A stretch of 64,000 nt of DNA, taken from assembly GCA_015478895.1 (NCBI GenBank), contig JADMKK010000008.1, positions 1 to 64,000 of the forward strand. The letters are read 5' to 3'. The position numbers and the translations under genes were made by a program. The notes under the pieces are model-generated. The model ran no database searches. It saw only the letters and a list, made by a program, of their open reading frames with translations, and was not told the DNA's origin. The stretch's first letter is position 1. Every line of letters begins with the position of its first letter. The stretch comes from Comamonas sp. GTDB taxonomy: Bacteria; Pseudomonadota; Gammaproteobacteria; Burkholderiales; Burkholderiaceae_C. Shown piece by piece: positions 22,699-23,992 of this stretch.

Positions 22699-22879
22699 GC
22701 CGGGTTTCGCCCCGGCGGGCGAGTTCCTTTTTGTGCGCGACAAAAAGGAACCAAAAAGCGCGTCTGCGACGCTGTCCGGCGGAACTCGCTGCGCGCTTGC
22801 AGCGCTTCGCTCAAACAGCCGCCGGAAAAATGAGGGACTTCCACGTGGTTGGGGCGCGACGCTTGCGCGCGCGGGGTGG
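22699..22879 (+). repeat. Left arm of ~185-bp inverted repeat flanking AT-rich island
   Basis: Aligns nearly end to end with the reverse complement of 23807-23992; roughly 80% identical by eye. Confidence 0.88.
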
Positions 22880-22983
22880 GATTTGAAACCTTCTTATTAA
22901 AAATGTAGGTGTCTAAAAACACACACCTTGAATTGTATTTTAGGAGACGGACTAATACAATTATTAATCAATAAAAAATAGAC

Positions 22984-23700
22984 TTGAAAATATTAATGAT
23001 AGATATTGGCTCAACAAATTTTTATTTTAGCCTGCCAAATGTTTCTGAAGAAGAACTTGAAAAATATTCAGAAAATCTTTTTGATTCTTGGGCAAGCACC
23101 ATTGATGATACTCTAGCCATAGAAGATTTCTCTATTTCTCTTGAAATAGAGGAGGGTTCTGTTAAAGGTAAGGGGCGTATTTTGGCCACAGCAGCAGCTA
23201 TATATATTGCTGTTGGTCAATGGGGGTCTTTTTGTTCAGGAGTTCAAATAATAAAATCTCAAATTATGGCGGTAAGTGATTTTCTTATTAAAGAAGCCGA
23301 GGTGAAAATAAACCAACCTGTCGGTTTGAAAAGGTTAAGGAGGTCTAGTGGTGCGCTAGGAAAAATTGACGTTCTTTTTAAAAAAGTACAGCGTGGAGAT
23401 ATAACTCCTGAAGAAGCAATGCTCAGGACGGAAATGATATTGAGTTCAGAGGATGGTATACCTCCGAAGTTAATGAAAGAAATAGAAGATAGCTTTATAG
23501 GGATACCTGTTTTTCACAAGCAAATCCCTCTATTTGTTCCGAATTCTCCTGTGGTTCCAAATAATGGGAATCCACTTGGTTATCGTTCAGTCATAACTAA
23601 TTCTTCAAGAAATAATAGAAATAAAAAAGATAAATTCCGAGTGGAAATATGGAGAGGATCACGGGGAGATTTAAGAAAAGTTAAGTCGACAAAGATTTAA
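22984..23700 (+). CDS. Hypothetical protein in AT-rich island (TTG start; alternative ATG at 22996)
   Basis: Long ORF in sequence far more AT-rich than the rest of the window; no family recognised. Confidence 0.7.
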   Translation: MKILMIDIGSTNFYFSLPNVSEEELEKYSENLFDSWASTIDDTLAIEDFSISLEIEEGSVKGKGRILATAAAIYIAVGQWGSFCSGVQIIKSQIMAVSDFLIKEAEVKINQPVGLKRLRRSSGALGKIDVLFKKVQRGDITPEEAMLRTEMILSSEDGIPPKLMKEIEDSFIGIPVFHKQIPLFVPNSPVVPNNGNPLGYRSVITNSSRNNRNKKDKFRVEIWRGSRGDLRKVKSTKI

Positions 23701-23806
23701 CTATTGTCTTTATCTCCATCTATCCGCGCCGAGGCGCGCAGAGCGTAAGGCAGAGTAGAGGCACCGAAGCTCGCATGTGACTGCCCGCAGTTTTTTGAGC
23801 GCAGCG

Positions 23807-23992
23807 CCACCCCGCACGCGTAAGCGTCGTGCGGTTCCCCATCAAAAATCATTTTTCCGGCGGCCTGTTTGAGCGTAGCGCTGCAAGCGCGCAGCGAGTT
23901 CCGCCGGAAGCTGTCGGCAGACGCGCTTCTTTGGTAACTTTCTTGTCGCGGACAAGAAAGTTACTCGCCAGCCGGGGCGAGACCCGGCCTCT
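23807..23992 (-). repeat. Right arm of ~185-bp inverted repeat flanking AT-rich island
   Basis: Reverse complement matches the left arm. Confidence 0.88.

What the first reader, a model, noticed from the sequence alone, without database searches (positions are those of the whole stretch)
22699..23992. AT-rich orphan island bounded by ~185-bp structured inverted-repeat arms
Seen directly: the segment downstream of dbpA reads gatgccgggtttcgccccggcgggcgagttcc... and ends ...cgacgcttgcgcgcgcggggtgg. Its reverse complement recurs ~0.93 kb away as ccaccccgcacgcgtaagcgtcg...ctcgccagccggggcgagacccggcctc. The arms enclose only low-GC sequence with one ORF, in an otherwise GC-rich chromosome. No transposase or integrase is present. 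Established/recalled: arms with the 'cgggtttcgccccggcgggcgagt...ctttc' core resemble dispersed intergenic elements of many beta/gammaproteobacteria whose function I do not know to be settled. Inference: a non-autonomous cassette boundary (mobilised in trans or exchanged by homologous recombination between arms) that captures foreign orphan genes.
Basis: partly seen in the sequence, partly recalled or inferred. Interest (0 to 1): 0.85.

Follow-up and report, generated by a model that had tools for sequence, protein, structure and literature searches.

The report
Paired DNA-hairpin sockets for swapped genes
In this bacterium (genus Comamonas) a pair of mirror-image, hairpin-forming DNA repeats sits at a fixed place behind the gene dbpA and holds a small foreign gene; in sister species the same repeats hold a different gene or none, so they look like a socket in which accessory, often defence-like, genes are exchanged.

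Summary
Two ~186-bp arms (22695-22882 + and 23807-23992 -, 82% identical) face each other around a 37% GC segment with one ORF. The genus is Comamonas. The arm core is a structured DNA motif found in 53 of 54 Comamonas genomes. Among 118 neighbouring core pairs, 79 are inverted heads-out, usually as a discrete ~250-bp-gap unit; about a tenth are stretched by cargo. Paired positions change together (299 double changes against 3 G-U cells), so the palindromes are kept as DNA, not RNA. Downstream of dbpA, the five closest species all carry the arms or their remnants, but with a different gene (G044), no gene (G024), or collapsed or decayed arms (G010, G050, G052). The left arm is mosaic, and a decayed older right arm lies inside the present one. 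Other arm sites are also orthologous, with differing, often nuclease- or defence-like cargo. In one species (G064) the bare unit transposed: 11 of 14 copies have perfect 8-bp target duplications. Best reading: old MITE-like units now act as fixed sockets whose cargo is swapped by recombination inside the arms. The exchange mechanism and any defence role are inferred. It resembles Neisseria minimal mobile elements plus a mobile insertion cassette.

The parts
21177..22589 (+). dbpA (DEAD-box RNA helicase), conserved left neighbour of the site
   Evidence: Pfam DEAD, Helicase_C and DbpA domains; orthologues in 49 of 54 genus genomes
22695..22882 (+). left arm, head outward: head hairpin, second hairpin, core, terminal GCGCGACGCTTGCGCGCGC hairpin
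22723..22751 (.). second hairpin of the left arm (GTTCCTTTTTGT/ACAAAAAGGAAC)
   Evidence: pair I8
22773..22835 (+). covarying 63-nt arm core (model R1, 84 bits)
22996..23700 (+). cargo ORF, 234 aa (ATG start as in relatives; 238 aa from TTG 22984); no known domain; predicted alpha/beta fold, pLDDT 85
23706..23810 (-). decayed inner half of an older right arm, orthologous to the right arms of G044 and G024 at the same site
   Evidence: alignment scores 113.5 and 114.5 against a maximum of 64 in 200 shuffles; weak core match 23774-23838
23807..23992 (-). present right arm, head outward
23847..23910 (-). arm core of the right arm (78 bits)
23934..23964 (.). second hairpin of the right arm (GTAACTTTCTTGTC/GACAAGAAAGTTAC, perfect 14-bp stem)
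   Evidence: pair I7
24186..24734 (+). blc (lipocalin), right neighbour
   Evidence: Pfam Lipocalin_2; in G050 blc lies about 2 kb downstream of dbpA

Best explanation
The arms are the two ends of an old, non-autonomous, MITE-like element family of Comamonas and relatives. Their DNA is a series of hairpins that is maintained as DNA. After ancient insertion downstream of genes such as dbpA and lpd, the pairs stayed at fixed orthologous sites. They now serve as sockets: the low-GC gene between them is replaced, gained or lost by recombination (most likely homologous) within the arms, whose sequence is shared between sites and species, while the chromosomal flanks stay. Shown: the fixed sites, the cargo difference, arms kept without cargo, the mosaic arm, the decayed second right arm, and transposition of the bare unit in G064. 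Inferred: that homologous recombination rather than a dedicated recombinase does the swapping, and that the cargo is defence-like.
For: Heads-out pairs dominate: 79 against 17 head-in and 22 direct, chi-square p about 1e-24. DNA-level palindromes: 299 double changes against 3 G-U cells. The dbpA site is shared by 6 species with cargo A (G000), cargo B (G044), none (G024), collapsed (G010, G050) or half (G052). Other arm sites are orthologous too: C32, C4, C49, C57, C20, C5. Mosaic left arm: outer 60 nt follow the G024 orthologue (5:0 informative sites), inner 128 nt follow another locus of this genome (9:18), p = 0.01. Decayed older right arm. Tail side is lower in GC than head side in 24 of 27 arms of the six closest genomes, p = 1e-5. 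Cargo: HNH, PDDEXK_9, DUF3800, AAA_15, several with defence-model hits. Mobility of the unit: 11 of 14 perfect 8-bp duplications in G064.
Against: No cargo-bearing copy with target duplications was seen, and the right flank of G000 (blc) differs from those of G044 and G010. The mosaic test rests on few sites. Two relatives of the cargo in other genera are also bracketed by arms, which could mean that arms and cargo move together as one cassette. One genome per species only, several in fragments.
Confidence: 0.58

Rival explanations
1. The whole [arm-cargo-arm] is one non-autonomous transposable cassette (mobile insertion cassette) moved in trans by an IS1595-type or other transposase; the site after dbpA is a recurrent target.
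For: The two-armed unit transposed in G064 with CCTGATTAG ends and 8-bp duplications. A similar end lies beside a DDE_Tnp_IS1595 gene remnant in this genome. The same cargo family lies inside arm pairs in two further genera.
Against: No CCTGATTAG ends at the window pair and no target duplication at the four complete pairs of this genome. The arms at the dbpA site are orthologous across species while the cargo differs.
Confidence: 0.22
2. A dedicated recombinase acting on folded single-stranded DNA (as an integron integrase or a Y1 transposase does) recognises the arm core and inserts or excises cargo between the two arms.
For: Invariant AACTC...TC..ACA strands inside covarying stems; almost no G-U pairs, so the hairpin is read as DNA.
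Against: No such enzyme was identified near the arms. Palindromes could also be kept by template switching without any protein.
Confidence: 0.12
3. The arms are ordinary intergenic palindromes (terminator-like), and the cargo entered them by chance because they are neutral insertion sites.
For: They lie downstream of genes, and most pairs in the genus have no cargo.
Against: Discrete two-armed unit with fixed spacing and orientation; transposition in G064; three of three intact relatives of the cargo found in the family, the window's included, lie between arms, although the core reaches threshold in only 6 of 200 genomes sampled across the order.
Confidence: 0.08

Closest known systems
Minimal mobile elements (MME) of Neisseria, with NIME/dRS3 repeat arrays (PMC3898611)
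   Same: Different whole-gene cassettes between conserved genes in different genomes; incorporation by homologous recombination; repeats suggested to promote exchange.
   Different: Here the socket is a defined pair of ~186-bp inverted, covarying hairpin arms rather than arrays of 20-bp dRS3 repeats, and the bare pair is itself a transposable unit in one species.
MITEs and mobile insertion cassettes (e.g. PMC5444012)
   Same: Inverted ends, no transposase, a passenger gene between them; multicopy; 8-bp duplications in G064.
   Different: At the window no target duplication or known transposon end; arms persist at orthologous sites while cargo changes.
REP/BIME and REPIN elements (PMC3733652)
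   Same: Intergenic DNA palindromes, often in inverted arrangement.
   Different: Arms are ~186 bp with several hairpins and enclose genes; REPs are 20-40 bp.
Integron gene cassettes (attC sites; recalled)
   Same: Folded DNA sites next to diverse small accessory genes.
   Different: Arms are an inverted pair, one on each side; cassettes are not in head-to-tail arrays behind an integrase.

Membership tests
Minimal mobile element | different gene cassettes between the same conserved genes in different genomes | tested here: met
   dbpA site: 234-aa gene in G000, 253-aa gene in G044, none in G024/G010/G050/G052. Left neighbour conserved in all; right neighbour shared by G044 and G010 but not G000
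Minimal mobile element | incorporated solely by homologous recombination | not testable with these tools
   mosaic arm is consistent but not proof
MITE / mobile insertion cassette | terminal inverted ends, no transposase inside | tested here: met
MITE / mobile insertion cassette | target-site duplication at the window copy | tested here: not met
   no duplication at the edges of four complete pairs of this genome
MITE / mobile insertion cassette | target-site duplication anywhere in the family | tested here: met
   11 of 14 G064 copies have perfect 8-bp duplications
IS1595-mobilised element | shares terminal sequence with an IS1595-type element | tested here: inconclusive
   G064 units and a DDE_Tnp_IS1595 remnant of this genome both begin CCTGATTAG; the window pair lacks this end
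REP/REPIN with RAYT | 20-40 bp palindrome | tested here: not met
   arm is ~186 bp with several hairpins
REP/REPIN with RAYT | Y1 (RAYT) partner gene in the genome | not tested
Integron cassette | one attC per cassette, all in the same orientation | tested here: not met
   arms are paired and inverted around the cargo
Integron cassette | integron integrase in the genome | not tested
Rfam RNA family | match above gathering score | tested here: not met
   no relevant match

The most novel reading that the evidence does not exclude
An undescribed class of folded-DNA cassette border, spread through Comamonadaceae, with its own recombinase acting on the arm core, which installs and exchanges anti-phage or orphan genes at many fixed chromosomal sockets; the arms travel with certain cargo families between genera.
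Probability: 0.17. Interest if true: 0.86.

Novelty: new variant of a known kind. Interest (0 to 1): 0.64.

Why it matters
It links two things usually studied apart: dispersed intergenic palindromes whose role is unsettled, and the turnover of small low-GC accessory genes that carry no mobility gene of their own. If right, the arms are an address tag: searching genomes for inverted arm pairs stretched beyond ~500 bp would list candidate defence and orphan genes directly, and sister strains would show exchange tracts that tell homologous recombination from site-specific recombination.

Tried and rejected
Rfam: nothing relevant. RNA function of the arms: rejected because paired columns change on both sides with only 3 G-U cells among about 1,480 paired cells. 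Plasmids, phages and viral contigs as carriers of the arm: no match at the sensitivity used. Three viral-contig relatives of the cargo have no arms or long inverted repeats. Cargo function: no Pfam, NCBIfam, PADLOC or PHROG match and no PDB sequence match. First fold model too poor (pLDDT 56). The second (pLDDT 85) has no significant PDB or viral match; weak matches to Rep/HUH-type and ferredoxin-like folds are not significant, and no histidine pair or tyrosine is among the invariant columns. G050 as an empty site for the whole unit: it holds remnants of the two heads, so it is a decayed site. G066 at the lpd site: no arms, but about 850 bp of other DNA instead of a clean junction.

Full report
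OBSERVATION. The window holds two arms, 22695-22882 (+) and 23807-23992 (-), that are 82% identical and face each other heads outward. They enclose 924 bp of 37% GC in a 60% GC window, with one ORF, 22996-23700. Each arm is a series of hairpins: a head (CCGGGTTTCGCCCCGG), a second hairpin with 12 to 14 perfect pairs, a 63-nt core, and a terminal GC-rich hairpin. The whole arms fold somewhat better than shuffles as single strands (z -2.1 and -3.0).

THE ARM FAMILY. The own genome (G000, 3.2 Mb, 61 contigs) has 13 cores. Contig lengths and record titles identify the genus as Comamonas (G010 = C. avium, G003 = C. testosteroni SWCO2; inferred). A covariance model of the core finds it in 53 of 54 genomes of the genus, and in 6 of 200 genomes sampled across the order, three of them Comamonas. 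A DNA pattern also finds it in Acidovorax, Simplicispira, Giesbergeria and Paenacidovorax. In 20 Comamonas genomes with 258 cores, neighbouring cores less than 6 kb apart are head-out inverted in 79 cases, head-in in 17 and direct in 22 (chi-square p about 1e-24, or 1e-16 without the many G064 copies; copies are related, so this is not a strict probability). Most head-out gaps are 235-275 bp: the basic unit is an empty two-armed palindrome. Eight of the 79 are stretched to 0.87-3.3 kb.

DNA, NOT RNA. On 140 distinct cores, 96.4% of cells pair, 299 cells have changes on both sides (85 in shuffles, at most 51 in slid controls), and only 3 cells are G-U. An RNA would be expected to pass through G-U pairs; their near absence means the palindromes are kept, or copied, as DNA. 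The alignment was fitted to the model, which favours pairing but does not explain the lack of G-U; the unfitted alignment shows the same.

FIXED SITES, CHANGING CARGO. DbpA orthologues show that the five species with the most similar DbpA (88-92%) all have arms or remnants directly downstream of it. G044: arm, 253-aa gene, arm, then an HbpS-like gene (named by eye). G024: both arms with 175 bp between them and no gene; its right arm is 79.5% identical to that of G044 over 303 bp. G010: the outer part of the left arm joined straight to the outer part of the right arm, same downstream gene, about 1.3 kb shorter than G044. G050: only remnants of the heads. G052: left arm and a degenerate right one. 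In the window the cargo is the 234-aa gene. Between it and the right arm, 23706-23810 aligns with the inner right arm of G044 and G024 (scores 113.5 and 114.5; best of 200 shuffles 64). So an older, orthologous right arm was cut in its core, and the present right arm, which resembles the left arm of G024 more than its right arm, lies beyond it. The left arm is mosaic: its outer 60 nt agree with the G024 orthologue (5 informative sites to 0), its inner 128 nt with the C4 arm elsewhere in this genome (18 to 9; Fisher p = 0.01).

OTHER SITES. Flanking genes of other pairs were located in six relatives and compared with arm positions. The C32 site has arms also in G044, G052 and G010; C4 in G044 and G010; C49 (lpd) in G010 and, as a head, G024; C57 in G052 as a row of five direct arms; C20 in G010 and, by its VOC gene, G066; C5 in G010. 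At the lpd site the cargo is DUF3800 in this genome and a 652-aa protein in G010. On the tail side of arms, GC is lower than on the head side in 24 of 27 cases in the six closest genomes (p = 1e-5), but not in more distant ones (5 of 13), so low-GC cargo is a feature of this part of the genus.

CARGO. Own-genome cargo: the 234-aa gene (C8), an HNH protein (C4), a PDDEXK_9 protein (C5), DUF3800 (C49), a GNAT (C32). Others: an AAA_15 ATPase near the arm in G066, and a HATPase/DUF4325 protein in G051. PADLOC models give hits for several (ZorE 2e-6, PDC-M04A 5e-10, NsnB 3e-27, DrmA 3e-7). These are similarities to defence proteins, not evidence of defence. The window gene belongs to a family of at least 66 proteins without name or domain, with conserved MIDIG and EEGS.KGKG motifs. 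Its model (pLDDT 85) has no significant structural match. In 301 genomes of the family, three others have it; the two intact copies, in other genera, also sit between head-out arms (G075: cores on both sides and a 126-nt 95% inverted repeat; G134: an 89-nt 97% inverted repeat and one weak core). The third is split in two frames and has none.

HOW THE UNIT MOVED. In G064 the empty two-armed unit is present about 17 times with a core spacing near 313 bp. It begins with CCTGATTAG and ends with its complement, and 11 of 14 copies have perfect 8-bp target duplications. That is a non-autonomous transposable element. In the own genome a similar end lies beside a DDE_Tnp_IS1595 gene remnant. From my own knowledge IS1595-type elements make 8-bp duplications, so such a transposase is the natural partner in G064. 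The window pair has neither these ends nor a duplication.

MODEL. Old transposition of two-armed units gave fixed sites; later, low-GC genes were exchanged between the arms. Homologous recombination within arms is the simplest means: arms are shared between about a dozen sites per genome and between species, mosaics are seen, and remnants of an older arm lie beside a newer one. A whole-cassette transposition, or a recombinase that reads the folded core, is not excluded. The presence of the same cargo family between arms in three genera favours either co-transfer or preferred capture.

KNOWN OR NEW. It works like a Neisseria minimal mobile element (PMC3898611) with MITE-like structured borders, and like a mobile insertion cassette (PMC5444012). 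I found no paper on these arms in the library held, which lacks most subscription journals. Hence: a new variant of a known kind.

Noticed in passing
window 8805-8861, 15151-15207, 24797-24842, 28465-28524, 32430-32476, 38490-38526, 55513-55574, 58709-58769: A second dispersed intergenic repeat of ~40-60 bp (GGCCTCTAGCCCTTAT..AAGGGCTAGTAGCTAT), at least eight copies in the window in both orientations; similar sequences stand just outside several arms.
   Followed up: no
window 24743-24793: Long, almost perfect hairpin after blc (GCACTGGCCCATTTTGTTGG stem), probably a terminator; it gives a spurious Rfam miRNA match.
   Followed up: no
L191 (G000:C28) 4017-4468: Remnant of an IS1595-type transposase gene preceded by a CCTGATTAG end like that of the transposed two-armed units of G064.
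   Followed up: partly
L137 (G052:C5) 2159-4946: Row of five arms in direct orientation (four of them ~340 bp apart) between the genes that flank the C57 pair in this genome; a similar row in G047:C28.
   Followed up: partly
L015 (G000:C4) about 5835-5995: Short element (GGGAAGCTCTGCATAAATC ... GCAGAGGTTCCTTAA) beside the HNH cargo inside the C4 arm pair; looks like a separate small insertion.
   Followed up: no
L142, L145, L146, L152 (G064) and L050 (G024): Some G064 copies of the two-armed unit carry the same extra ~53-nt piece (TTCACGCTTGCGTGGGGCGGAACTTATATGG...GTGGAGACC) after the second hairpin, with a similar piece in the G024 left arm: modular arms.
   Followed up: no
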